From positions 1 through 34,942 of the forward strand of contig JAFSVL010000027.1 of assembly GCA_017445015.1 (NCBI GenBank): 34,942 nt of DNA, written 5' to 3'. This stretch comes from Bacteroidales bacterium (GTDB lineage Bacteria; Bacteroidota; Bacteroidia; Bacteroidales; UBA932). Positions 5,698 through 33,979 of this stretch are shown one piece after another. The translations under genes were made by a program, and so were the position numbers. The notes beneath the pieces were generated by a model. The model was not told the origin of the DNA. It ran no database searches and saw only the letters and a list, made by a program, of their open reading frames with translations. Position 1 is the first letter of the stretch; each line of letters begins with the position of its first letter.

Positions 5698-8631
5698 TTA
5701 CTTTTTGATGATGGCGCGGTTCCCCCTGCCGTCTATACAAATATCCAGCGGAGCATCAAAGCGGACATGCCGCAGATATCCGGTTTCAAATACGGCGGGA
5801 AGGGCCTGCAGCGCCTCATAGTCAAAACTGTCGCCGTCCCGTGCAAACGGGTCCACATTGATGAAGCCCACATTGAAGGAGGTCAGGTTCTGGAAGAAAT
5901 GCGTCCCCTGGCTGGGGTCCACACGGAAATCTTCCAGCGAACACTCCACCAGCACCTCGACCGAGGAGATGTCGCTCCACTTGACGGGGACGCCCAGCGA
6001 AGAGATAGCGGACCCCCAGCGGCCGTAGCCGATCAGGACGTATCCCCTGCCCTCCCCTCGGAACTGCGCGTTGAGTTTCGAAATTTCTTCCGCCATCTCT
6101 ACTGTCCGGAGCCGGTCGAAACTCTCCTTCTTCAGATAGACCACATCCTGTACGCCGCTAATCCAGCCCGTTCCCAGGGCACTTTCGGAGGTCAGCAGCG
6201 CCCCTTCCGTCGAAATGCTCTGCCAGTCCACGTCCGAACGGCGGCTGTCGGTCGATATCGGCCGTACCTGGAGTACGTTAAAAATCGCGGGGGCGCCGTC
6301 GGCGGGGATTTCCGCCGCAAACTCAATCTCGATATCGCAGCGCGTCTCTTCCCGCATGATGTCCAGCAGCCGACGCGTAATCGATGCGATGGGGAAAGTG
6401 CCGAACTTGAGCATCGGCGCAAAGGTCACGAATTTCGGACCTTCCGGCCAGGGAGAATCGACGATGCGGCCATTGGCTTCATCCCAGGTCGAAACGACCT
6501 TCCGGAAAGAAGCAAACTTCCCGCAGTCCGATATGGGGATGCGCTCGAAGTTGACGGAATCGTCCACCGAGGTCTTGAAGCGCTCCGGACTGAGGCTGAG
6601 CGCGAACATCGCCTTCTGCGTTTCCGTCATCACCAGGTCCGGCGTCGAGGTCTGGATGACATGCTTGGGATAGTTGGGTGAGAAACGCAGTACCTGCTCC
6701 CCTTCCACCACGGCTTTCCCCAGCCCGTAAGCCAGTTTGACGATGCCGTCTTCCGCCTTTTCGTTGCCGACAGGATAGAAGTTGAGGGAACGTGCCACGC
6801 CAGAGAGGGTCGGGAAATAAAGCCCGTCTTCCTCCGAGCCGCAGACTTCCTCGATGATGATGCCCATCTTCTCCTCGGAAATCACATTGCCGCTGGCCGT
6901 GATATACGCCTTTGAAGAAGAGAAATACACGCTCGCATAGACGCTCTTGATGGCTTTCGTCAACAACCGCAACTCCTGGTCTTCATTCTCCGTATGGGGA
7001 ATCATATAGGTGGAGTAAACTCCGGCAAACGGTTGATAATAAGAATCTTCCAGTACAGACGAAGAGCGGACGGCAAGAGGCTTGTGGACCATGCGGATGA
7101 AGGTTCTCAGCGACTCCACCAGGTCCCGCGGCAGGGTGGAGGCCACGAATTCGGAAAGGATTTCCTCATCGGAACTGTCCGAATCAATCACGTACTGGAG
7201 GCCGTTCCCGACAATGAATTTGTCGAAATACTCGGTAGTGACCACCAGTGTACGCGGCACCAGCACGCGCACGCCATCCCATTCCGAATACAGGTTGTGT
7301 TTCTGCAGGATGTGGTTGAGGAACGCGAGGCCGCGGCCCTTTCCGCCCATCGACCCGCTGCCGAGCCGGGAGAACCAGATGGCGTCATTGAAACTGTCCG
7401 CATGGAAACTGGCCACTGCGCCCAGCCCTTCCCGGATGCGGTAGGAATGGATGCAGTCCGCACAGGCCTGACGCGCCGCATCGATATCTCCGCTGGGGCC
7501 GATATCCATCCGGCTGATTTCCCGGCCGAGGTCGAACAGTCCCCGCGCGAACATCCACTTGGAAAAATAGTTGTGCTTTGCGATGCCCACCAGGTCTGCG
7601 GCGGACATGCTGCGCACGATGCGCTCCAGGTCGCTGAGGTTCGATGCGCGGTCCTTTTCCTCTCCGGTCTTGCGGTCGAACACCACGAAATCGCCGAAAC
7701 AGAATTCCCGCTCGATATAGGCGGCAAGTTCCATCATCAGCACCTTCGAGGATTTGTGGATGAAACCGACTCCGAGTTTTTCCGCAACGGCACGCATGCT
7801 CTCCTGCGAAGACTGCATCAGGATGGGCATTTTGGGATTGTCCTCCTTGATGCGCCGGCAAAGGTCAACCCCCGCGTCGATTTTCTCGTCTTCCGGCTTG
7901 TCCCCCTTATGCAGCACAAAGCCCACATCGGAAATGACACCCAGCAGATTGCCTTTGTAATGCTCGTAAAGGGCGATGGCGTCATCATAATTGGTAGCCA
8001 TCAGCACCTTGGGGCGGGAACGTTTGCGGATGACCTGCTGCCGTTCGTTCAGGGCGTCCTTGATGGAGGAGTTGTTCTGGTGGAAAATCAGGGTATAGAG
8101 CGCAGGCAGGTAGGACGAATAGTAACGGATGGAATCTTCCACCAGCAGGATGGCCTGAACGTCGCATTCGAGGATATCGTGCTCCGCATTGAGCGAATCC
8201 TCAAGCAGTTTGATGATGGCGATAAGCAGGTCCGTGGAGTTGTTCCAGCAGAAGACATAATCGATGCAGGAACGGTCCTTGTCCGCAATCTGCCTGCGGA
8301 CTTCACGGGAAAAGGCGGTCAGGAGGACGATGGGCACGGACGCATCCAGCGCCTTCGCCTGACGGGAGAAGGAGAATACGTCCAGTTCACCTACATTGTA
8401 CATGGTGATGACAAGGTCGAAGCGCTGCCCCGCTTCCAGCAGGGCCAGCGCATCCACCGTCGTTTCCGCCCTCACGATGGCGGGAGGATTGCTCAGGTTC
8501 AGCTCAGCGTATTCATTGGCGATGAGCGTCTCCATGTTGCCGTCCTCTTCCAGGACGAAACTGTCATAATTATTACAAACAAGGAGAATTCGGCGAATTC
8601 TCCTGTTCATCAATGTAGCATGGTCCTCCAT
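5698..8631 (-). CDS. Tandem receiver plus PEP-synthase-like (PPDK_N) protein
   Basis: A large 977-residue cytoplasmic protein. Residues 13-145 resemble a receiver domain, but the phosphoacceptor position (VITMYNV) lacks Asp, so it appears degenerate. Residues 158-308 form a second receiver with acidic ED at 165-166, a putative acceptor Asp235 (VISDVGF) and Lys293 (HKSSK). From about residue 415 onward it resembles the nucleotide-binding N-terminal domain of PEP synthase/PPDK: MGGKGRGLAFL, then AVRSSSVLEDS and FAGVYSTY. The swivelling phosphohistidine domain and the C-terminal PEP-binding barrel of true PPDK/PEP synthase are not evident. The family is found in Bacteroidota, but its function is, to my knowledge, undefined. 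It sits 30 bp after gdhA and 1 bp before asnA. No partner histidine kinase is present in the window. Confidence 0.8.
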   Translation of the reverse strand: MEDHATLMNRRIRRILLVCNNYDSFVLEEDGNMETLIANEYAELNLSNPPAIVRAETTVDALALLEAGQRFDLVITMYNVGELDVFSFSRQAKALDASVPIVLLTAFSREVRRQIADKDRSCIDYVFCWNNSTDLLIAIIKLLEDSLNAEHDILECDVQAILLVEDSIRYYSSYLPALYTLIFHQNNSSIKDALNERQQVIRKRSRPKVLMATNYDDAIALYEHYKGNLLGVISDVGFVLHKGDKPEDEKIDAGVDLCRRIKEDNPKMPILMQSSQESMRAVAEKLGVGFIHKSSKVLMMELAAYIEREFCFGDFVVFDRKTGEEKDRASNLSDLERIVRSMSAADLVGIAKHNYFSKWMFARGLFDLGREISRMDIGPSGDIDAARQACADCIHSYRIREGLGAVASFHADSFNDAIWFSRLGSGSMGGKGRGLAFLNHILQKHNLYSEWDGVRVLVPRTLVVTTEYFDKFIVGNGLQYVIDSDSSDEEILSEFVASTLPRDLVESLRTFIRMVHKPLAVRSSSVLEDSYYQPFAGVYSTYMIPHTENEDQELRLLTKAIKSVYASVYFSSSKAYITASGNVISEEKMGIIIEEVCGSEEDGLYFPTLSGVARSLNFYPVGNEKAEDGIVKLAYGLGKAVVEGEQVLRFSPNYPKHVIQTSTPDLVMTETQKAMFALSLSPERFKTSVDDSVNFERIPISDCGKFASFRKVVSTWDEANGRIVDSPWPEGPKFVTFAPMLKFGTFPIASITRRLLDIMREETRCDIEIEFAAEIPADGAPAIFNVLQVRPISTDSRRSDVDWQSISTEGALLTSESALGTGWISGVQDVVYLKKESFDRLRTVEMAEEISKLNAQFRGEGRGYVLIGYGRWGSAISSLGVPVKWSDISSVEVLVECSLEDFRVDPSQGTHFFQNLTSFNVGFINVDPFARDGDSFDYEALQALPAVFETGYLRHVRFDAPLDICIDGRGNRAIIKK

Positions 8632-23357: not shown

Positions 23358-23365
23358 TAAATTTG
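23358..23365 (+). promoter_or_regulatory. Candidate -7 element of the kelch-AraC gene
   Basis: TAAATTTG matches TAnnTTTG exactly and ends 6 bp before the ATG at 23372, implying a near-leaderless transcript. Confidence 0.55.
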
Positions 23366-23371
23366 CGGATA

Positions 23372-24979
23372 ATGATTTCCGCTTTATCTCTCTTGCTCAT
23401 ATTGACTGCCTTCACGCCTGTCGGGGTGGAACGTCTGCCGGATATGCAGGTGCCGCGGGCAGGTCACGCTTTCATTGCGTCGGATGATGACGTTCTGGTG
23501 GCGATAGGCGGGCATACGACGGGATTCGTGCGTACGCAGACAGCGGAAGAATACAAAAACGGTCGTTGGCAAGCCCTTCCTGCCCCTCTCTATCCGCACG
23601 ATTGCGGATTCTGCCTGCGTCAGCGCGACGGCGCTTTTCTTTTGGGCGGAGGCCTGGGAGAGGATTTCGGCATAGGACAGAGTTTTGGGATCGAGCGCTA
23701 TAGGCCGGACTCGAGGCAATTCTCGGCTGTGGGAATCCTGGACCGGGCCAGGGCCTTTGCAAGTGCCATTGAGTTGCAGGACGGCAGCATCGCCGTGTGC
23801 GGGAATCTCCACGCAGAGGATGCGCTCGCCATACTGGATACCGCCACCCTGGGGACCAGGATGGATGCGCCGTTGACCTGTCCGGTCAGTACGGGCAGTT
23901 GCCGTCCCTGGTTGTTTGAAACTTCAGACGGAGATGTGCTGGTGCTGGGCAGGGGTCTGGACGACTATTGCCGGCCCGTTCCCTGTACGCTGAACAGTTG
24001 GCGGGGAAAAACGCCGCCGAGTCCCGTTCCGGACGACTGGATGCCCATAGGGTCGGCAAACGGCAATTCCCGCAGTGAAATTGCCCCGTATTCCTATCTG
24101 GTGCCCCTGATGAAGCGGGACAGTAGCGCCTATGCCGTACTCTTCGTGCGGGATGGGAAGTTCTCCACCCTCGAAACCGACCGGCCTTTCCCTGTGGAAG
24201 GCATAGACGGCGGCAAATGCTGGTGGGAGACGCTTTATGCGGACGAGGACACCCATTGCGCCTGGCTTACCGGACGGGACGTTCCGGGCCGCTTTTATCT
24301 GGCGAAAATTGATTGTGTCCCCGCTTTCGACGGGAAGAAAGCAGCAGTTACATTTTACTGCACGCCGGAAAAGGTTGCAGGCTTACCGCGCGGCGACTGG
24401 AATGTCGCCGTACTTTCCGGCGGAAGGATTGCTATGGCCGGTGGATACAGCAAGTGGGAAGGAGGAAATTTTTCCCCGGTCGCATCGGCGTGGATATTCC
24501 ATACGGAAGTTTCCCAAAAAGGCGGCTTGCCTTGGTGGGCCTGGGCAGCGGGAGCCTTCCTTGCGCTCTGTGCAGTTGTTTTTGCTTTTGTCCGCAGAAA
24601 GACACGATGCAGGAAGCCCGACGCCGGGAATACCTCTTTCACCGATATGATGACCCGCATCCGGTACCTTATGGAGGAAAAGCAGTTTTTCCGCAGGCCG
24701 GATCTGAAGGTGGAAGACATCGCCACGGAACTGGGGACCAATGTGGCCTATGTCCGCGGCTGCATTGTCGGAATGCAGGGGGGCTCGTTCAAGGATTTTG
24801 TGAATGGTTACCGAGTGCGCCACGTTCAGCGAATTCTCCTGGAACACCCCGATGCTAAAATCAATCTGCTCGCTGAGGAAGCAGGTTTCTCCAGTACGGC
24901 TACTTTCTATCGTTGCTTCTCTGCGATATGTGGCTGCTCGCCCACGGAGTGGTTGAACCAACAGAATATTCCGAAATAA
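23372..24979 (+). CDS. Transmembrane kelch-sensor / AraC-type regulator
   Basis: A 535-residue one-component regulator. An N-terminal hydrophobic signal (MISALSLLLILTAF) is followed by about 370 residues with kelch-like repeats (DDDVLVAIGGHTTGF, DGAFLLGGGLG, GRIAMAGGYSKWEGG), predicted periplasmic. A membrane helix (WWAWAAGAFLALCAVVFAFV) is followed by basic residues and a cytoplasmic AraC/XylS-type helix-turn-helix domain (KVEDIATELGTNVAYV, then INLLAEEAGFSSTATFYRCFSAICGCSPTEW). It probably senses an extracytoplasmic ligand and acts on DNA at the membrane. The ATG at 23372 was chosen over an in-frame TTG that is part of the -7 element. Targets are unknown; the adjacent lipoprotein gene is a candidate. 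Confidence 0.8.
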   Translation: MISALSLLLILTAFTPVGVERLPDMQVPRAGHAFIASDDDVLVAIGGHTTGFVRTQTAEEYKNGRWQALPAPLYPHDCGFCLRQRDGAFLLGGGLGEDFGIGQSFGIERYRPDSRQFSAVGILDRARAFASAIELQDGSIAVCGNLHAEDALAILDTATLGTRMDAPLTCPVSTGSCRPWLFETSDGDVLVLGRGLDDYCRPVPCTLNSWRGKTPPSPVPDDWMPIGSANGNSRSEIAPYSYLVPLMKRDSSAYAVLFVRDGKFSTLETDRPFPVEGIDGGKCWWETLYADEDTHCAWLTGRDVPGRFYLAKIDCVPAFDGKKAAVTFYCTPEKVAGLPRGDWNVAVLSGGRIAMAGGYSKWEGGNFSPVASAWIFHTEVSQKGGLPWWAWAAGAFLALCAVVFAFVRRKTRCRKPDAGNTSFTDMMTRIRYLMEEKQFFRRPDLKVEDIATELGTNVAYVRGCIVGMQGGSFKDFVNGYRVRHVQRILLEHPDAKINLLAEEAGFSSTATFYRCFSAICGCSPTEWLNQQNIPK

Positions 24980-25051: not shown

Positions 25052-25723
25052 ATGAATCAAAAACATTCGACGGCATTTCTGCTGCTGGCCATACTCTTCG
25101 TAGTATGCTTCGTATCCTCCAATCTTTTTGCGAGTAAGATTGTCTGCATCCTGGGCGTGAACCTGCCCGGCGCGGTCATCGTCTTTCCCCTCTCCTACAT
25201 CATCGGCGACTGCCTTACGGAAGTCTGGGGCTTCAAAAAGGCGCAACTTGTCATCTGGACGGCGTTCGCGATGAATCTGCTCGTCGTCCTTTTCGGATTA
25301 CTTATCGTGCATCTTCCGGCGGCCTCTTTCTGGGACGGCGGTCCGCATTTTGACTATATGTTTAATCTGGCCCCGCGGATCGCGGCGGCTTCGTTGCTGG
25401 CCTTTTGGGCGGGCTCGACGCTCAATTCGATGGTGCTCAGCAAGATGAAAGTGGCCGACAGGGGAAAACGCTTCGGCGTACGCGCCATCCTTTCCTCCAT
25501 CGTCGGAGAGTTTGCGGATTCGCTGATTTTTATGCCCATCGCCTTCTTCGGCGCCCCTGTCACTTCCCTGCTGCCGATGATGCTGGCGCAGGTCAGTTTC
25601 AAAGTCATTTACGAAATCATCATCCTGCCGCTCTCCAGCCTGATTGTCAGCAGGCTGAAAAAATATGAACAGACCGATACCTTTGACAACGGTATCTCCT
25701 ATAATCCATTTAGTCTCTCATGA
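25052..25723 (+). CDS. yhhQ: Queuosine precursor transporter (YhhQ/QPTR family)
   Basis: A 223-residue inner-membrane protein with about six hydrophobic segments and the family signatures [20 protein letters not shown] and [20 protein letters not shown]. The family imports preQ0, preQ1 or queuine, deazaguanine precursors of the tRNA base queuosine. It follows a preQ1-I riboswitch and overlaps the queF start by 4 bp (ATGA), giving a two-gene queuosine unit. Co-occurrence with QueF suggests that preQ0 may be an imported substrate; this is inference. Confidence 0.92.
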
Positions 25724-26181
25724 ACAACCGCAAAGACGAGGGCCTGAAGGCCCTGGGAAGAAAAACTGAATACAGGACGGAGTACGACCCTTCCGTCCTC
25801 GAAGCCTTTGAAAACAAGCATCCTGAAAACGATTACTGGGTCCGCTTCAACTGCCCCGAATTCACCAGCGTCTGCCCCATCACCGGACAGCCGGACTTTG
25901 CGGAAATCCGCATCAGTTACCTTCCCGGCCGCCGGATGGTCGAAAGCAAGAGCCTGAAACTCTACCTGCTCAGTTTCCGCAATCACGGCGCCTTCCACGA
26001 GGACTGCGTCAATATGATTATGAAGGACCTCATCGCCCTGATGCAACCCAAATACATCGAGGTTACGGGTTTCTTCTCCCCCCGCGGCGGCATCAGCATC
26101 CACCCCTACGCCAACTACGGCATCCCCGGCACCAAGTACGAAAAACTCGCCGAACAGCGCCTCTTCAACTACGAGCCCTAG
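25720..26181 (+). CDS. queF: NADPH-dependent 7-cyano-7-deazaguanine reductase
   Basis: A 153-residue single-domain QueF. It has the catalytic Cys52 in [14 protein letters not shown] with Asp59 nearby, the [21 protein letters not shown] substrate and NADPH motif, and a C-terminal [18 protein letters not shown]. It reduces the nitrile of preQ0 to the amine preQ1, the only known biological nitrile reduction of this type. It is translationally coupled to the transporter (4-bp overlap) and lies under the preQ1 riboswitch, giving product feedback. Identification is secure. Confidence 0.95.
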
Positions 26182-26249: not shown

Positions 26250-27191
26250 GTGCATTACGACGTTTTCATCAGTTATTCCCGCAAGGACAGCAAGGCCGCC
26301 AACGCCATCTGCGACGCGCTGTCGAATGCCGGGCTCAGTTACTTCATTGACCTTGAAGGCATCAGCGGAGGGGCGAATTTTCCGGACGTACTGGCCAAAT
26401 CCATCGACGCCTCTTCCGTCTTCCTGCTGCTTGCCGGAAAAAATTCATACGCTTCCAAATTCACGATGTCCGAGGTGCTCTATGCGTTCAATCACAAACG
26501 CATCGGTTGCATCATCCCCTGGCTGCTCGACGATGAGCCTATGCCCGCCGACATTGAATTCCTCCTCGGGAACGTCAACTGGCTGGACTGCCGCAAAAAT
26601 ACGCTGGACGAACTGGTGGAGGCCATCCAACAGGCCATTGCCAATCCCTCGATGGGCATCGGAAAATGGAAAAAGGACAGCCACTGGCAAAAATGGCTAT
26701 TTCTCCTTGCCATTCCGTTCATCCTGGGAGGCATCGGCATCTACTCCCAGAGACAGAAGAAACGCGCGGAAAACGCCTTTATCGCGGATGTCAGTACCTA
26801 TCAGGGACGCATTGCCCGGGCCGATTCGCTGATTCGGCATTCCGCGTCCCTCAATGACCTGCCCAATACCGTTGAGACCACCCCGGAGCAGATTGCATCC
26901 CTCAAAGAAGCGGACGCCTGTCTCGATGTGTCCGACAGTATCGCCGCCTGCTACCGCGGGACGCCTGATTCCTACCGCTTCAGCGAATCGACGACCGGGC
27001 GCCACCGGACCATCAAAACCCGACTGGATTCGATGTACGCGGTTTGGCTGAATCAGGCCCGCGACGCCTACGGATTCTGGCAGGACAGTCCCGCAGAAGC
27101 CGAGTATGCACTGATGTGCGCCGAGTATGCGCTCTCCATCAAGGAAAGCAGCGAAATGCGCGAAATGAAAAACAAACTGGACAAAATATGA
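26250..27191 (+). CDS. Membrane-anchored TIR-domain protein
   Basis: A 313-residue protein starting at GTG; an in-frame stop lies just upstream, so no earlier start is possible. Residues 1-130 form a TIR domain: YDVFISYSRKD (3-13), the BB-loop region YFIDLEGISGG (31-41) and SKFTMSEVLYAF with Glu75 in the position of the catalytic NADase Glu. One membrane helix follows at about 149-165 (WLFLLAIPFILGGIGIY) with a basic stop-transfer RQKKR. The remaining roughly 145 residues are helical and predicted extracytoplasmic, so TIR would face the cytoplasm. Bacterial TIR domains of this type can cleave NAD+ or cyclise it into signal nucleotides. The stop overlaps the next gene by ATGA. Role in defence or signalling is inferred from the domain and operon. 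Confidence 0.85.
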   Translation: MHYDVFISYSRKDSKAANAICDALSNAGLSYFIDLEGISGGANFPDVLAKSIDASSVFLLLAGKNSYASKFTMSEVLYAFNHKRIGCIIPWLLDDEPMPADIEFLLGNVNWLDCRKNTLDELVEAIQQAIANPSMGIGKWKKDSHWQKWLFLLAIPFILGGIGIYSQRQKKRAENAFIADVSTYQGRIARADSLIRHSASLNDLPNTVETTPEQIASLKEADACLDVSDSIAACYRGTPDSYRFSESTTGRHRTIKTRLDSMYAVWLNQARDAYGFWQDSPAEAEYALMCAEYALSIKESSEMREMKNKLDKI

Positions 27192-29467
27192 CAAAGCGAT
27201 TCGTCATTACCCTGATTACTTTATTCCTGGTGCAGGGCATTTGCCTGGCCGGTATCTTTGAGGACCGCTGCAAACGGGCCGAAGAACTGCGCGCCCAGAA
27301 AAACTGGACCAAGGCGATAGAGATGCTGCTGTCCGCAAAAAAGGTAGCCGGCATCACCCAGGCGCAGATGGATGAAGCCGACCGCCGCATCCGACTGTAC
27401 CGGAATGAAATGTACAAATCCAAGGAACTGCGGCTCTCGGAAACCAGGATTGTCGCGGAAGCCGCAGGGGCGGCGCAGCGGATCGGGGTGACGGCCGGTC
27501 AAAGTTGGAAGATCAGCCAGTGCCCGCAATGGTGCCTGGCCACGGCGGAATCCGACGCCCTGCTCGTTACGGTGGAGCCCAATTCGGAACGCCAGCCGCG
27601 CAGCGGCGAGATTGTCGTTGCGATGGGAAAAATCACGGCAATGCTGGAAGTCGAACAGGCCGAACGCCCGATGATATCCGGGAACGTCGTCATCCGTACC
27701 GTCCCCGAGAAGGCCCTCATCCGCGTTGATGATGAGCAGGCTACGCTGAAAAACAAGTTTACGCTTTCGGAAGGCCGGCACATCATCCGGCTGGAAAAGG
27801 ACGGTTATATGCGCAGGGACACCGTCGTGACCATTGACCCCTCTTCCCCTTCGGATACCACATACCTGTTTAACCTCACGCGGGAGTTCGCCACCCTTTC
27901 CGTCAATATCACGTCGGCTAAGGGCTATGAATTCACGGAACTGCCCGTACTGGAAATCAACGGCAACGTCGTGGACCTGCATCCCCGGAACCTGAATGAC
28001 TTCGACAAGGACCAGCCGATTGCCTGGTACACCCTGTATAAAGGCGACGAAATTCCCCTGCGCTACTCGGACGACCACATCTTGAAAGTGTCTGCCGACG
28101 GGTTCCGCACGCAGACCCGCTCCATTTCCCTGGACCGGGAGCACAATCATCTGTCCCTGTCGTTCGAACTGGAGCCCTTCTGCGGTACCCTTACCCTCAC
28201 GGACGAGGAAAACGCGACGGGGGCACGGGTATTCATCAACGAACAGGACGCCGGAACCGTTCCGTTCTCAGGAAAAGTACTTCAGCGCGGCAATTATACC
28301 GTCAGGCTTGTCAAGCCGGGGTACAGGACGGTGGAGGACGAATTCAACATTACGATTAACGGCGATCAGGAAACGGCGCTGAGAATCAGTATGTTCCCTT
28401 TCAGTTCGTATTACATCACATCGGAACCGGCCTATTGCAAGGTGTTCGTGGACGGCATTCCGGCGGGAACCACTCCCGTCTCCATTCCGATGAAGGAAGG
28501 AGAGCACGTCCTGACCATCACCAAAGATGGGTTCTTTCCTGAAACCAGGACTATCAGCACGGATCTTTCCCTACTTTCCCATCCCGTAGACGTGACGCTG
28601 GAAAAGACCTTCCCGTTGACCGTCCGCTCCGCAAAAGAATCGTATGACCTGATCATTTCCAAAGGAAGCGGGAAAAACAAGAAGGTGTATTACGACACCC
28701 TTGAGACCACGGCTACCGTTCAACTTCCATTGAGCAAAGAACGCTACAGCGTCAAACTCAAGCGTTACGGGAAACGCTGTATGTACCGCGGCAAATTCCG
28801 TTTCAATGACCCGAAGAAAAACCAACTCAACCTGCTGGCCTGGACACCCGGCGTTTCCCTGCTGAGCGCCGACTGGTACCTGATGCGGCCGCCGGTGTTT
28901 TCCTACGAAGATGTAAAGACCGACCCTGCCAATCCCACCACTTTCAATTACAACCGGATCGCCGATATCAGCGTAGGAACCATCCCCATTGTGCGCGGTC
29001 TTTCCACCTCCGTGGCCAAGGGCAGTTTGTTCTGGGAAGACTGGGGAGCACCCCGTGCGGAAACCGATCCCGCCAGCCCGATGGTCGTACCCGCCCTGAC
29101 GGTTCTCTTCCTCAACGGAGACTTCCGGGTGGGCGGCGCCATCTTCCAGTATATGGATGTCAATTTACTCGCCTCCTACGCCTGGTATCCGGATTTGAGC
29201 GGCATCCTGCAATTCTCGCATATGTCCGGACACGATATTTTCCTGGGACTGGAACTCAATTCGCGCATTCCCGTCTTCAACCTGCATCTCAAGGCGGGAC
29301 TTCAGGCCTTCTACGGTCAGGGGAACATCCTGCGACCGGGCACCGGGAAAATCGATATCCAGAAAAATTATACGGTCCCTGTCCAAGACTTCAAGTTCGT
29401 CGTATCCGCCGGCTTTACCCTCGGAACACACAAGACCCGCGGACAAAGCATACTGAGAATCTTCTAA
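27188..29467 (+). CDS. Secreted BACON/PEGA-repeat protein with barrel-like C-terminus
   Basis: A 759-residue protein starting at the ATG that overlaps the TIR stop; the longer open frame upstream lies inside the TIR gene. A signal peptide (MTKRFVITLITLFLVQGICLAG) is followed by a helical tetratricopeptide-like stretch (24-75), a BACON-like domain (about 80-158) and several PEGA-type repeats (about 165-217, 237-327 degenerate, 331-400, 408-470; e.g. KVFVDGIPAGTTPVSIPMKEG). After about residue 540 it has alternating strands and ends in IF, resembling an outer-membrane barrel. It is therefore predicted periplasmic to outer-membrane. PEGA and BACON domains usually bind surface partners or carbohydrate. 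It is joined to the TIR gene by overlap and to the RyR gene by a 3-bp gap. Confidence 0.8.
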   Translation: MTKRFVITLITLFLVQGICLAGIFEDRCKRAEELRAQKNWTKAIEMLLSAKKVAGITQAQMDEADRRIRLYRNEMYKSKELRLSETRIVAEAAGAAQRIGVTAGQSWKISQCPQWCLATAESDALLVTVEPNSERQPRSGEIVVAMGKITAMLEVEQAERPMISGNVVIRTVPEKALIRVDDEQATLKNKFTLSEGRHIIRLEKDGYMRRDTVVTIDPSSPSDTTYLFNLTREFATLSVNITSAKGYEFTELPVLEINGNVVDLHPRNLNDFDKDQPIAWYTLYKGDEIPLRYSDDHILKVSADGFRTQTRSISLDREHNHLSLSFELEPFCGTLTLTDEENATGARVFINEQDAGTVPFSGKVLQRGNYTVRLVKPGYRTVEDEFNITINGDQETALRISMFPFSSYYITSEPAYCKVFVDGIPAGTTPVSIPMKEGEHVLTITKDGFFPETRTISTDLSLLSHPVDVTLEKTFPLTVRSAKESYDLIISKGSGKNKKVYYDTLETTATVQLPLSKERYSVKLKRYGKRCMYRGKFRFNDPKKNQLNLLAWTPGVSLLSADWYLMRPPVFSYEDVKTDPANPTTFNYNRIADISVGTIPIVRGLSTSVAKGSLFWEDWGAPRAETDPASPMVVPALTVLFLNGDFRVGGAIFQYMDVNLLASYAWYPDLSGILQFSHMSGHDIFLGLELNSRIPVFNLHLKAGLQAFYGQGNILRPGTGKIDIQKNYTVPVQDFKFVVSAGFTLGTHKTRGQSILRIF

Positions 29468-29470
29468 ACG

Positions 29471-31396
29471 ATGATGAAAGGAATCTCCCCCTGTTCAAAA
29501 CTGAAACTGCTGATCCAGCGGGCACTCTCCAAGGGCGGCCTTTCCCAGTTCCTTGTTCCCTTCGGAATGGCGGTCCTCACCTGGCTGCTTTTTGTCGCTA
29601 CGCTGCAACTGATGCTCAACGCCGGCGCGACCACGATGCAGGATCTTCAGGCGCTGCGTGACAATCTGGAGGATTACGACATTTTTGAAATCGCCTTCTT
29701 CCATCTTTTCAGCAGCGGTGATATCGACCAGATGACGGTCGGCCCGGGCTGGCTCGTCGTCATTATCGGCGCCCTGCTGGTAGCGGCGGTCACCTCGGTC
29801 TTCACCAACTTCTTCGGAAAACTCGCCGGCGATTACCTGGATGGGCGCTCCGATTACCGGGTCCAAATGCATACCGCCATTTTCGGCTTCAATCCGGCGG
29901 TTCCCGAACTGATTCTCCGATTGATGCAAGAGGGGCGGGAAGGATACTTTCTCGTCCTGACGGGCGATGTTCGCACGGCGCGGAACAACCTGCGGTCGGC
30001 ATTGGGCAAGAAGCGGATGCGGCGCGTACTGCTCCTGAACGGCGATATCGCATCGGCGGAAGATATGAAGCGAATGCAACTGGACCGGGCAGCCGAACTG
30101 CATATTGCGGGCGATGCGTGCGATCCTGCCGATGCGCGGGATGAAAAATGCATCCGCTGCCTGGACAACGCAGGGAAAGCGACAGCGGGCCGAAAAGGGC
30201 TCCCCTGTTTCCTGATGCTGGAAGGTAGCGCGATGCTGCCCGCCTTGCAGGTAATGGATACGGTTCCTTCCTCGCTCGCCCTTTTCCCGATGAACCAGTC
30301 CGGGATGTGGGCGCACAAACTGTTCCTTGGGAAGGAGGCGACTCCGCTGGAGGGTTCCGAAGGAATCCGCCCCGACTCCCCCGACCACGTGCACCTCATC
30401 CTTATCGGGATGTCCGACTACGCACGGGCGCTTGCCCGGGAAGCCGGTCACCTCGCCCATTACCCCAATGCGGCGCTTTCCCCGGAACTACGCACCCGCA
30501 TCTCGTTCATCGATCCTGCCGCTGCAGAAGGGATGAAACGGCTGGAATGCGAACCGGGTGGCCTGTTCTCCGTATGCCGCAGAAGATTTGTTCCTGCCGA
30601 TATGCCCGTGCGGAAAGCCGCGTGGGAAATTCCTTCGCAAACACATCTGGGCGAAGATTTTATGGACCTTGAATGGGAATTCATCGAAGGATCGGCCTGC
30701 GACCAAAACATCCGGCAATATCTGGAAGAATGCGCTGCGGATGCCCATTGCCGCCTGACCGTTGCCGTGTGCCTGCCGGATGACGCCCAGTCGCTGGAAA
30801 CGGCCCTCCATCTGCCGGACTCCGTGCTGGAATCCGCCCTGCAGATCCCGGTACTCCAGAAGCGGGGAGACGCCAGCGTCGCCCTGCTCTCGTCAGGCAA
30901 GACGGTCAATCAACGCAAATTCAAGAAACTCAAGGCGTTCGGAATGGAATCCGTCGCCTGCGACCTGCCCTTCATCCAATCTCTCATCGGGCTTGCCTTA
31001 TCGCTGGACAAGGCCCCGGGAAGCGGCCGGGAAATCCCTTCCAAATCCGAAGCCGCCAAACTGTGGTCCAATCTCTACAACACGGCGCACAGTTACACAA
31101 AGAGGCGGTGTGCCGATGCCTCCCTCGACTGGCAGGGCGACCTGGAAGAGGTGTTGGCCCGCACGGAACACGCCCGGTGGAACGCGGAACAACTGCTGCT
31201 GGGATTCCGGCCCCTGAGCCGCGAAGAACAGGATCATGTCCTTGCCGGTGAAGAATCCTTTGCCAGCCGCAAGGCGGAACTCAAGCGGGAAAAGATGGCC
31301 CATCTGGACATCTGCTCCTGGGAACGCCTGCACGAGATCGACAGGGCTTCCATTGCCTACGATTTCAATCTGGTACGACAACTGCTTAACAAGTAA
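29471..31396 (+). CDS. Two-TM, RCK-like protein with C-terminal RyR domain (candidate channel)
   Basis: A 641-residue protein. Two membrane helices (about 28-49 and 93-113) flank a re-entrant-like segment (FFHLFSSGDIDQM, 77-88) reminiscent of the pore loop of CASTOR/POLLUX-type channels. Two Rossmann-like regions follow: HTAIFGFNPAVPELILRL from 134 and HVHLILIGMSDYARALAREA from 307, as in RCK/TrkA-N regulatory domains, though their glycine motifs are atypical. Residues about 527-640 form a RyR domain: LWSNLYNTAHSY, TEHARWNAEQLLLGFRP, KMAHLDICSWERL and DFNLVRQLL. RyR domains are known from ryanodine receptors. Two start codons occur in tandem at 29471 and 29474. Channel activity and ligand are inferred. 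It lies between the PEGA gene (3-bp gap) and the HD gene (6-bp gap). Confidence 0.78.
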   Translation: MMKGISPCSKLKLLIQRALSKGGLSQFLVPFGMAVLTWLLFVATLQLMLNAGATTMQDLQALRDNLEDYDIFEIAFFHLFSSGDIDQMTVGPGWLVVIIGALLVAAVTSVFTNFFGKLAGDYLDGRSDYRVQMHTAIFGFNPAVPELILRLMQEGREGYFLVLTGDVRTARNNLRSALGKKRMRRVLLLNGDIASAEDMKRMQLDRAAELHIAGDACDPADARDEKCIRCLDNAGKATAGRKGLPCFLMLEGSAMLPALQVMDTVPSSLALFPMNQSGMWAHKLFLGKEATPLEGSEGIRPDSPDHVHLILIGMSDYARALAREAGHLAHYPNAALSPELRTRISFIDPAAAEGMKRLECEPGGLFSVCRRRFVPADMPVRKAAWEIPSQTHLGEDFMDLEWEFIEGSACDQNIRQYLEECAADAHCRLTVAVCLPDDAQSLETALHLPDSVLESALQIPVLQKRGDASVALLSSGKTVNQRKFKKLKAFGMESVACDLPFIQSLIGLALSLDKAPGSGREIPSKSEAAKLWSNLYNTAHSYTKRRCADASLDWQGDLEEVLARTEHARWNAEQLLLGFRPLSREEQDHVLAGEESFASRKAELKREKMAHLDICSWERLHEIDRASIAYDFNLVRQLLNK

Positions 31397-31402
31397 AGTT
31401 CA

Positions 31403-31984
31403 ATGGCAAACAAACCGATGAATACCGAACTGCTGGACCGCGCAATCATCTTTGCGGTCCGCGCACACGCGGGCACCGAGCGCCGCGGAAAGGGTTTTCC
31501 TTATATCGTACATCCGATGGAAGCGGTAGAAATCGTCGCGACGATTACCGCGGACCAGGAACTCCTGGCGGCGGCTGCGCTGCACGATACCGTCGAAGAT
31601 ACGGACGTAAGCGTCGAGCAACTTCGCGCTGAATTCGGCGACCGTATCGCCGCGCTGGTGGCATCTGAAAGCGATACCTTCGAGGCGGGCGTCAGCGAGG
31701 AAGACAGTTGGCACGCGCGAAAGAAAGCGGCCATCGACCGGCTCGCCGCCGCATCGCACGATGCAAAAATCGTCGCTATGGGCGACAAACTTTCGAATAT
31801 GCGCGCCATTGCCCGGGACTATGCGGTCAAGGGCGACGAACTTTGGAAAATCTTCCACGCCAAGGCCCCGAAGGACCACGAATGGCATTATCGCGGCCTG
31901 GCGGATTCCCTGCGCGAACTCTCCGACACCTTCGCCTTCAAGGAATTCGAATCGCTGATCAATCAGGTATTTGGCCCGAAATAA
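31403..31984 (+). CDS. MESH1/SpoT-like HD-domain hydrolase
   Basis: A 193-residue stand-alone HD enzyme of the RelA/SpoT hydrolase group. Metal and active-site motifs are His22, HP (37-38), HD (61-62) followed by TVED (63-66), and VAMGDKLSNM with Asp128. The synthetase domain is absent, so it corresponds to a small alarmone hydrolase or MESH1, which remove pyrophosphate from (p)ppGpp or phosphate from NADPH. It starts 6 bp after the RyR-domain gene, making it the last gene of the TIR operon, and ends 3 bp before the convergent nucleosidase gene. In context it could degrade the nucleotide signal made by TIR; substrate is unknown. Confidence 0.85.
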   Translation: MANKPMNTELLDRAIIFAVRAHAGTERRGKGFPYIVHPMEAVEIVATITADQELLAAAALHDTVEDTDVSVEQLRAEFGDRIAALVASESDTFEAGVSEEDSWHARKKAAIDRLAAASHDAKIVAMGDKLSNMRAIARDYAVKGDELWKIFHAKAPKDHEWHYRGLADSLRELSDTFAFKEFESLINQVFGPK

Positions 31985-32616: not shown

Positions 32617-32646
32617 CAAATGTAGTAAATTAATACCCTTTCTCAA
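32617..32646 (-). promoter_or_regulatory. Bacteroidota-type promoter of the nucleosidase gene
   Basis: Minus strand: TTG (32646-32644), a 19-bp spacer, then TACATTTG (32624-32617). The last base is 5 bp from the ATG, so the mRNA should be leaderless or nearly so. It lies within the 3' end of the helicase fragment. Confidence 0.7.
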
Positions 32647-33979
32647 AAGCACCTGTCCTGGCCGTATCAACGGCGGTATCCCAGAGGCCGATGACAGTGC
32701 CGGTGTGCTTGTCGATTCCGGTGTATTCCAGTGAGGAGTCCTCGTAGCGCTTGAACTTATACACTGCGTCGTTCATGAGTTCGCTGTTGAAGACACCGAG
32801 GCTCACCAGGAGGCTGAAATCCTTGAGGGTGAGGCCGGTGACTTTGCGGAAGAGTTCCGGTTCCAATTGCTCGATGACGTCTTTCAGGCAGTATTCCCGG
32901 TAGTCCGTGAGGTACATAAAGACCGGGATGCGGGTGGCAAACTTGATGAGTTTTTCCTGAATCTCCTTGCGCTTGCTTTTGTACTCTTTCTCTTCCTCAG
33001 TGAGCCGCTTTTTCTCTTTAGGCGTAAGGTCGTCGCCTTTCTCTTTCTTGGTGTTCTTAACGTGCTCGGACTTATTGATAATTGTCTCGATGTCAGAATT
33101 CAGACTGCGGAACCCTTCGATGTTCATCAAGGCTTTCATCGCCTCGGGATTGTTCATCAGGCGCTGGAGGGTTGCATTATCCACATTGACCAGAACAGCG
33201 CTTTCCCACCTGCGAGCCAGCAAGGTGGCCGTGGTGCCGCTCATCGCCATATCATGCACACCTGCGGCATCAATCTCCTTCATCGAAGAACCATCGTAAG
33301 CAAGAATCGGCAGGAACTTAATGAATTCCTCCACCTTCTTCTCCGGGTTGGTTTCTTTGACGTTGAGCTGGCAGCTATACTCTTCCACCTGACGCAGCGC
33401 CCGGTTGGGAGCAAAGTCAAAAACATAGCAAAGGGGTTTAAGGATGACTTCGTCTCCGGATTCGTCCTTCGTGGTCCAGGGAGACTGGACGCGGAAGGCG
33501 GCCTGGAAATAGGTTTCCGGAGACGTGGTATTGCGCAGCATCATAATGCCGGTCCAGGGCTTGACGGTGACGCCGGTGGAGAGTTTACCGCAAGAGAGCG
33601 TAATAGTTTTCGTCCGCTGCGGATCTTCCATTGCATTGTAAACTGGTTCCACTGCCTGAGCGCCCATCCCGGCCGAGTTCCCTGCGGCCACAATCACTTT
33701 GTACTCATCATAGAAACGATTGGAACGCTTCTTCAGGAGCTTAGCCATTGCCCGGCAAGCTGCTACGGACGGCAGGAACCAGTAAGTGTGCTGGAGATAG
33801 CTCAGCAGACGGGCATCGGAGAAAGGCATTGGCGGTTTCTCCGTGCCCAGTTTCAATTCTGTGACGATGTTCTCCGTATAGGCACCGCGAATGAGATCCA
33901 ACCACTTCTGTACGTATTCTTCGTGCAGGAAGTAATCATCTTTCCGCCCGAGGCACCTTGATAGCCCGTAGAGTGAGTT
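32630..33979 (-). pseudogene. N-terminally truncated DEAD/DEAH helicase (restriction-type) fragment
   Basis: An open frame of about 450 codons without a proper start; it opens after a TAG at 33982-33980. The sequence resembles the C-terminal half of a large SF2 helicase of restriction-modification type: AVEPVYNAMEDPQ, TITLSCGKLSTGVTVKPWTGIMML (motif V region), FQAAFRVQSPW (motif VI region) and YVFDFAPNRALRQVEEYS. Walker A and DEAD motifs are absent, so the N-terminal half has been lost. Upstream the frame runs into a hairpin/terminator and a direct repeat. This is best explained as a remnant left by deletion or insertion at an island edge. Translation from the TTG at 33901 is possible, but such a product would lack ATPase motifs. 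Confidence 0.65.

What the first reader, a model, noticed from the sequence alone, without database searches (positions are those of the whole stretch)
26250..31984. Four-gene TIR / PEGA / RyR-channel-like / HD-hydrolase operon
Four genes are joined by a 4-bp overlap and gaps of 3 and 6 bp, under a candidate dedicated promoter. They encode a membrane TIR protein with a putative catalytic Glu, a secreted BACON-PEGA protein, a two-TM protein ending in a RyR domain, and a MESH1-like hydrolase. TIR domains can turn NAD+ into cyclic ADP-ribose-type signals, and RyR domains belong to a receptor family linked to such signalling in animals. The set reads as maker, sensor/effector and eraser spanning both membranes. 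I do not recognise it as a named defence system.
Basis: partly seen in the sequence, partly recalled or inferred. Interest (0 to 1): 0.88.

Follow-up and report, generated by a model that had tools for sequence, protein, structure and literature searches.

The report
TIR sensor coupled to RyR-tipped channel
A gut-type Bacteroidales genome carries a gene set in which a membrane TIR protein, an envelope protein and a channel-like protein ending in a ryanodine-receptor-type domain travel together, which suggests that bacteria may use a TIR-made signal to open a channel, possibly as a defence against viruses.

Summary
The PEGA protein occurs in 14 of 299 family genomes; 12 have a TIR gene beside it. 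With three further loci there are 15 TIR-PEGA loci, and 14 have a RyR-type gene beside the pair. The HD hydrolase is an independent gene (31 of 61 genus genomes; beside none of these genes in 29 fetched loci).

Gene 3 is an RCK-type channel homologue (best PDB profile matches CASTOR and DMI1) with a divergent C-terminal RyR domain that Pfam misses. Its likely ligand residues, matching those of the phage cADPR-binding protein RyDEP, are invariant in 46 of 46 aligned homologues (one of 17 in another set lacks the first His). TIR genes lie near RyR-tipped channels in 30 of 80 loci, against 0 of 20 for related channels without RyR. In one genus an MscS-type pore stands beside the TIR-PEGA pair instead.

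Best reading: a Thoeris-like module in which an envelope-sensing TIR makes an ADP-ribose signal that the RyR domain reads to gate a channel. Signal, gating and anti-phage role are inferred. New variant of a known kind; my capped literature searches found no description.

The parts
26250..27191 (+). TIR protein, 313 aa, GTG start: cytoplasmic TIR domain (26262-26609), one hydrophobic segment (residues 149-167), C-terminal part probably outside the inner membrane
   Evidence: (TIR_2 73 bits, cut-off 28)
26472..26474 (+). Glu75, putative catalytic glutamate of the TIR domain
   Evidence: conserved in 14 of 14 aligned TIR proteins; catalytic role from TIR family knowledge, not tested
27188..29467 (+). 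Secreted BACON-PEGA protein, 759 aa, overlaps the TIR gene by 4 bp; probable envelope sensor
   Evidence: paired with TIR in 12 of 14 genomes
29471..31396 (+). Two-helix RCK-type channel homologue with C-terminal RyR domain, 641 aa
   Evidence: profile matches CASTOR E 2.9e-6, DMI1 4.2e-6; two hydrophobic segments
31148..31393 (+). RyR domain at the C-terminus (about residues 560-641) with E566, H567, R569, W570, H611, D631
   Evidence: invariant in 46 of 46; hhalign 73%, E 3e-5; Pfam RyR does not hit it
31403..31984 (+). HD_4 (RelA/SpoT-type, MESH1-like) small hydrolase, 193 aa; neighbour, judged not part of the module
   Evidence: 71.5 bits vs cut-off 27.2; independent distribution

Best explanation
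A three-gene, Thoeris-like signalling module. Step 1 (inferred): the secreted PEGA protein senses something in the envelope and acts on the outer part of the membrane TIR protein. Step 2 (inferred from family chemistry): the TIR domain turns NAD+ into an ADP-ribose signal, probably a 2' or 3'cADPR isomer. Step 3 (inferred from conserved residues and RyDEP biochemistry): the C-terminal RyR domain of the third protein binds that signal. Step 4 (inferred from homology): binding moves the RCK-type ring and opens an inner-membrane pore, so ions leak and the cell stops growing or dies. Anti-phage defence is the likeliest purpose. Shown here: the genes, their domains, the conserved ligand residues, the channel homology, and repeated linkage of TIR genes with RyR genes and RyR-tipped channels.
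For: RyR-type gene beside 14 of 15 TIR-PEGA loci. In 149 family genomes the channel co-occurs with TIR_2 (17 of 19 vs 22 of 130) and with PF02026 (15 of 19 vs 6 of 130). TIR within 6 kb of the channel in 5 of 18 non-own genomes, null mean 0.14, reached in 0 of 20,000 simulations. TIR near 30 of 80 RyR-tipped channel loci, 0 of 20 loci of RyR-less relatives; same-strand contiguous run with the channel in 23 of 79, with at least 15 changes on the channel tree. Other NAD-enzyme partners: SIR2-TIR fusion plus nSTAND1-WD40. Ligand residues invariant in 46 of 46 and matching RyDEP H75, W78, H100, D117. MscS-type pore beside TIR-PEGA in one genus suggests that permeation is the output.
Against: No activity was measured. 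Pfam RyR misses the window's domain. In another set of 17 homologues the first His is Lys in one, L038. The filter loop of the window clade is SSGD, not DPGN, so conduction is unproven. Within channel loci TIR is not sharply concentrated next to the channel (24 of 431 genes at +-3, 10 of 261 at 7 or more), unlike RyR (49 of 431 vs 2 of 261). One TIR-PEGA locus (L065) has no RyR gene found; the near relative L070 has no TIR beside the channel. 50 of 80 channel loci show no TIR, some on short contigs. The RyR-less controls come from other families, whose TIR frequency I did not measure. PADLOC and NCBIfam name no system here.
Confidence: 0.5

Rival explanations
1. Same wiring, other purpose: an envelope-stress or environmental signalling circuit (PEGA sensor, TIR second messenger, RyR-gated channel for ion or turgor control), not a defence system.
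For: PEGA goes with other cytoplasmic signalling domains: kinase, PP2C and FHA genes in L064, and a kinase-AAA gene next to TIR-PEGA in L062. MscS-type partner in one genus. No relative of the channel protein in the viral contigs or plasmids searched, and one weak match in phages.
Against: Patchy distribution (channel in 19 of 149 genomes); partners such as SIR2-TIR and nSTAND1-WD40 are typical of conflict systems (family knowledge).
Confidence: 0.25
2. The RyR tail is an eraser or sponge: as in phage RyDEP it cleaves or soaks up a cADPR signal and keeps the system quiet; the channel is gated by something else, such as an RCK ligand.
For: Both positions of the RyDEP catalytic dyad (H75, D117) have an invariant counterpart (H567, D631 by alignment).
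Against: In that paper only one RyR-domain protein cleaved; six of eight tested homologues bound 2'/3'cADPR and none of the other tested homologues cleaved. Fusion to an RCK-type channel fits a reader better.
Confidence: 0.13
3. One reading: HD protein as the dedicated eraser of the signal.
For: 6-bp gap to the channel; kept after the channel in L066 and L067.
Against: HD in 31 of 61 genus genomes, beside none of TIR, PEGA, channel or QueF in 29 fetched loci; absent after the channel in L068 and L069. It is 95-97% identical in L066 and L067 while the channel is 88 and 69%.
Confidence: 0.05
4. Chance neighbours with no joint function.
For: Some PEGA and many channel loci lack TIR.
Against: 14 of 15 TIR-PEGA loci with a RyR-type gene, although PF02026 is found in only 21 of 149 genomes; 0 of 20 control loci.
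Confidence: 0.02

Closest known systems
Thoeris anti-phage systems (ThsB TIR plus effector)
   Same: TIR enzyme next to a separate effector-like protein with a domain that can bind ADP-ribose-type ligands; the TIR domain is weakly like ThsB models (PADLOC E 3.2e-8; NCBIfam ThcB4 41 bits, cut-off 220)
   Different: Secreted PEGA partner; the effector-like protein is an RCK-type channel homologue with a RyR domain, without SIR2-SLOG or Macro hit
RyDEP and other phage RyR-domain proteins (PMC13232231)
   Same: Counterparts of the ligand residues H75, W78, H100, D117
   Different: RyDEP is a soluble phage glycosidase or sponge that switches the signal off; here the domain is fused to a channel homologue in the host
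CASTOR/DMI1 and other RCK channels
   Same: Best profile matches in the PDB: CASTOR 2.9e-6, DMI1 4.2e-6, TrkA-domain channel 7.5e-5, KCNT1 4.9e-4
   Different: C-terminal RyR domain; filter loop SSGD in the window protein; 21 of 21 relatives found elsewhere in the phylum show no EHxxW motif
Swarozyc DUF4062 NADases (PMC13174449)
   Same: The channel locus L025 has an nSTAND1 protein whose N-terminus I read as DUF4062-like (Pfam did not call DUF4062)
   Different: Passages searched in that paper mention neither RyR nor channel

Membership tests
Thoeris | TIR-domain signal producer with catalytic Glu | tested here: met
   TIR_2 over cut-off; Glu75 in 14 of 14
Thoeris | Known effector type (SIR2-SLOG, Macro and others) by family models | tested here: not met
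   No PADLOC or NCBIfam match for gene 3
Thoeris | cADPR-type signal and phage protection | not testable with these tools
   needs biochemistry and phage challenge
RyR domain (PF02026) | Pfam gathering score | tested here: not met
   no hit for the window protein up to E 10; one homologue, L038, is over the cut-off (28.3 vs 27.4 bits)
RyR domain (PF02026) | Profile similarity and ligand residues | tested here: met
   hhalign 73%, E 3e-5, shuffles at most 2.9%; residues 46 of 46, 16 of 17 for the first His in A1
RyR domain (PF02026) | Fold | not testable with these tools
   structure prediction switched off
CASTOR/RCK channels | Two pore helices and RCK domain | tested here: met
   hydrophobic segments 27-45 and 93-111; profile matches
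CASTOR/RCK channels | D-x-G type filter loop | tested here: not met
   SSGD in the window protein, DPGN or like in most relatives
CASTOR/RCK channels | Second tandem RCK domain | tested here: inconclusive
   PDB matches cover the first RCK part
SpoT/MESH1 small hydrolase (HD gene) | HD_4 domain over cut-off | tested here: met
   71.5 bits vs 27.2
SpoT/MESH1 small hydrolase (HD gene) | Activity on ppGpp or NADPH | not testable with these tools
   needs enzymology

The most novel reading that the evidence does not exclude
Bacteroidales have a TIR-to-ryanodine-domain signalling axis: an envelope-sensing TIR makes a cADPR isomer that binds a RyR domain and opens an RCK-type channel. It would be a bacterial counterpart of cADPR-RyR calcium signalling, to which phage RyR sponges and glycosidases are counter-measures.
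Probability: 0.45. Interest if true: 0.92.

Novelty: new variant of a known kind. Interest (0 to 1): 0.78.

Why it matters
A preprint of May 2026 (PMC13232231) shows that phage RyR domains bind or cleave 2'/3'cADPR and raises what cellular RyR domains do. This module offers a direct host test: a TIR gene beside a channel homologue that carries the matching ligand residues. If it works as proposed, it adds a channel-type effector to TIR signalling and bears on the old question whether cADPR acts on ryanodine receptors directly.

Tried and rejected
Viral-contig scan with the channel alignment: 21 pattern matches, none a relative. Phages: one weak match in an unannotated record (E 2e-4, 31% of the protein); plasmids: none. 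PEGA profile against the PDB: best E 0.11, so my idea of a C-terminal outer-membrane barrel stays untested. The four-gene idea was rejected for HD. I first thought HD missing in L066; my crude gene caller had hidden it and tblastn found it. Gene counts are therefore approximate; one search also found a TIR in L062 that one search had missed. A RyR-TIR fusion that I suspected in G052 is two genes. The near/far test inside channel loci did not sharply separate TIR; the RyR-less control came after it. Several loci are on contigs of the same name-length as loci (for example L074, L075, L091, L129), so the surveys overlap. Fisher tests ignore kinship. The 46 sequences of A3 are the window protein plus 45 of the 79 channel ORFs, chosen for ATG start and length.
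Full report
What is there. The four ORFs lie at 26250-27191, 27188-29467, 29471-31396 and 31403-31984 on the + strand. The spacings are as reported: ATGA overlap, 3 bp, 6 bp. Upstream, after a 68-bp gap, are a QueF-like gene (25720-26181) and a Vut_1 (YhhQ-type) gene (25052-25723). No sigma-70-type promoter was found in the gap.

Domains. Gene 1: TIR_2 (E 3.9e-20), one hydrophobic segment and a C-terminal part; Glu75 in 14 of 14 aligned TIR proteins. Gene 2: three PEGA stretches and BACON, with a hydrophobic N-terminus. Gene 4: HD_4. Gene 3 has no Pfam hit over cut-off. A profile of 46 homologues finds CASTOR (E 2.9e-6), DMI1 (4.2e-6), a TrkA-domain channel (7.5e-5), KCNT1 (4.9e-4) and BK (0.016) in the PDB, so it is an RCK-type channel homologue. 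CASTOR itself is described as a Ca2+ channel with two tandem RCK domains and without the TVGYG filter (PMC6697748, passages). The window's filter loop reads SSGD; most relatives have DPGN or similar.

The RyR tail. Pfam RyR does not find it. Its profile against 30 standalone RyR proteins gives hhalign 73%, E 3e-5. Controls: the two other slices of the protein 7.6% and 0%, TIR and PEGA 0.4% each, 20 column shuffles at most 2.9%. E566, H567, R569, W570, H611 and D631 are invariant in 46 of 46 sequences of A3; in the separate 17-sequence set A1 the first His is Lys in one, L038. L038 itself passes the Pfam RyR cut-off (28.3 vs 27.4 bits). In phage RyDEP, H75 and D117 form the catalytic dyad, W78 stacks on adenine and H100 holds the phosphates (PMC13232231: opening part and sections 4 and 5 read). 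The pairing of D117 with D631 is my reading of the alignment. In that work one protein cleaved 2'/3'cADPR; six of eight tested homologues bound it and these did not cleave. So the residues predict binding, not whether the tail reads or erases. The standalone RyR proteins beside many of these channels are clear PF02026 members (two scanned, E about 1e-33) and match animal RyR and 3nrt (one searched).

Linkage of TIR, PEGA and RyR. The PEGA protein occurs in 14 of 299 family genomes. A TIR gene is beside it in 12 of the 14; in G103 the PEGA gene is cut by contig ends. The exceptions are G289 (L055) and G038 (L064, where kinase, PP2C and FHA genes stand). With L067-L069 there are 15 TIR-PEGA loci, window included. 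A RyR-type gene is beside 14; L065 is the exception. The RyR comes as the channel-RyR protein (window, L066-L069), as 665-738-aa proteins with a RyR tail (L035, L056, L057, L249; two of them scanned by Pfam and below its cut-off), as a standalone gene (L057, L062), or as standalone RyR, MscS-type pore and RyR-tailed protein (L058, L059, L061; L060 is cut by its contig end). In L059-L061 this set faces the TIR-PEGA pair on the other strand. Several loci are from one genus and are not independent.

Linkage seen from the channel. In 149 family genomes the channel is in 19, TIR_2 in 39, PF02026 in 21. Channel and TIR co-occur in 17 of 19 against 22 of 130 (Fisher 6e-10), channel and RyR in 15 of 19 against 6 of 130 (1e-12). 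TIR within 6 kb of the channel: 5 of 18 non-own genomes, null mean 0.14, none of 20,000 simulations reached 5. In the genome collection 235 stretches encoded a relative and the best 80 were kept; nearly all record titles name Bacteroidia or groups within it. My gene caller finds the channel in 79 of 80. RyR genes lie within five genes in 45 of 79 and TIR in 24 of 79; over the whole flanks, RyR in 47 and TIR in 30 of 80. TIR is in a contiguous same-strand run with the channel in 23 of 79. On the channel tree this label needs 17 changes, 15 forced by starred branches; the shuffled mean is 20.1 and 23 of 500 shuffles are as low, so the linkage is only mildly clustered by kinship.

Control. A phylum search found the channel profile in 22 of 395 genomes, one of them the window's own. 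The 21 others match only the first third of the profile (pore and first RCK part), and none shows the EHxxW motif. In 20 of the 21 I fetched about 20 kb: no TIR, RyR, SIR2, DUF4062-like or nSTAND gene by the same models. These genomes belong to other families and I did not measure how common TIR is in them. Against a tight link: within channel loci TIR density near the channel (24 of 431 genes) is not far above that further out (10 of 261), unlike RyR (49 of 431 vs 2 of 261).

Other partners. L021 pairs the channel with a SIR2-TIR fusion and an nSTAND1-WD40 protein; L022 has the same layout. L025 has an nSTAND1 protein with an N-terminus I read as DUF4062-like. Sixteen loci carry a gene of about 190 aa (one scanned, no Pfam match), ten a gene of about 292 aa (one scanned, Peptidase_M48), and one scanned RyR protein of 376 aa also matches Peptidase_C39_2.

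HD gene. It follows the channel in the window, L066 (94.8% identical) and L067 (96.9%), not in L068 or L069, while the channel is 88% and 69% identical in L066 and L067. HD occurs in 31 of 61 genus genomes. In the 29 loci fetched from other genomes none of QueF, Vut_1, TIR, PEGA, channel or the phosphorylase is within the flanks of up to 1.5 kb. I judge it an independent gene that became a neighbour.

Mechanism. Best reading: PEGA senses, TIR makes an ADP-ribose signal, RyR reads it, the pore opens. Shown: genes, domains, residues, linkage. Inferred: every functional step. The MscS-type pore beside the same TIR-PEGA pair in one genus argues that passage through the membrane is the output. Defence is favoured by patchiness and by NAD-enzyme and STAND partners; envelope signalling remains a fair rival.

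Novelty. Nine literature searches showed no description of this module, but most listings were capped at 20 of many papers; only searches listed all that matched. Term searches inside PMC9503650 and PMC13174449 found no RyR or ryanodine. A 2015 comparative-genomics paper on nucleotide-centred conflict systems (recalled; not held) may have noted prokaryotic RyR domains; I could not check. I file this as a new variant of TIR-based signalling.

Noticed in passing
window 32630-33901 (-): 423-aa ORF matches positions 483-804 of a 1359-position type IIG restriction-methylase model (PADLOC E 7.6e-17); looks like a fragment, close to the module.
   Followed up: no
window 23363-24979 (+): 538-aa protein with Kelch-like part and C-terminal AraC-type HTH; also upstream of the module in L067.
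   Followed up: no
L034 (G041:C16:22450-39007): Six TIR_2 matches (five over cut-off) within 17 kb, beginning 5 kb from a RyR-tipped channel; one of them is fused to an FGE-sulfatase domain.
   Followed up: partly
L072:12587-13714; L114:12456-13025; L084:4928-5806: Recurring cassette beside RyR-tipped channels: about 190-aa gene, RyR protein with a C39-peptidase-like part, M48 peptidase.
   Followed up: partly
L021:56-7360: Channel-RyR, SIR2-TIR fusion and nSTAND1-WD40 gene in one run; looks like a separate defence-type system using the same channel.
   Followed up: partly
L062:5403-7184 (-): Protein kinase fused to an AAA ATPase directly downstream of a TIR-PEGA pair.
   Followed up: no
window 5698-8631 (-) and L033:8698-11700: PPDK_N-type proteins (977 and 1001 aa) occur both in the window and next to a channel-RyR gene in L033.
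   Followed up: no
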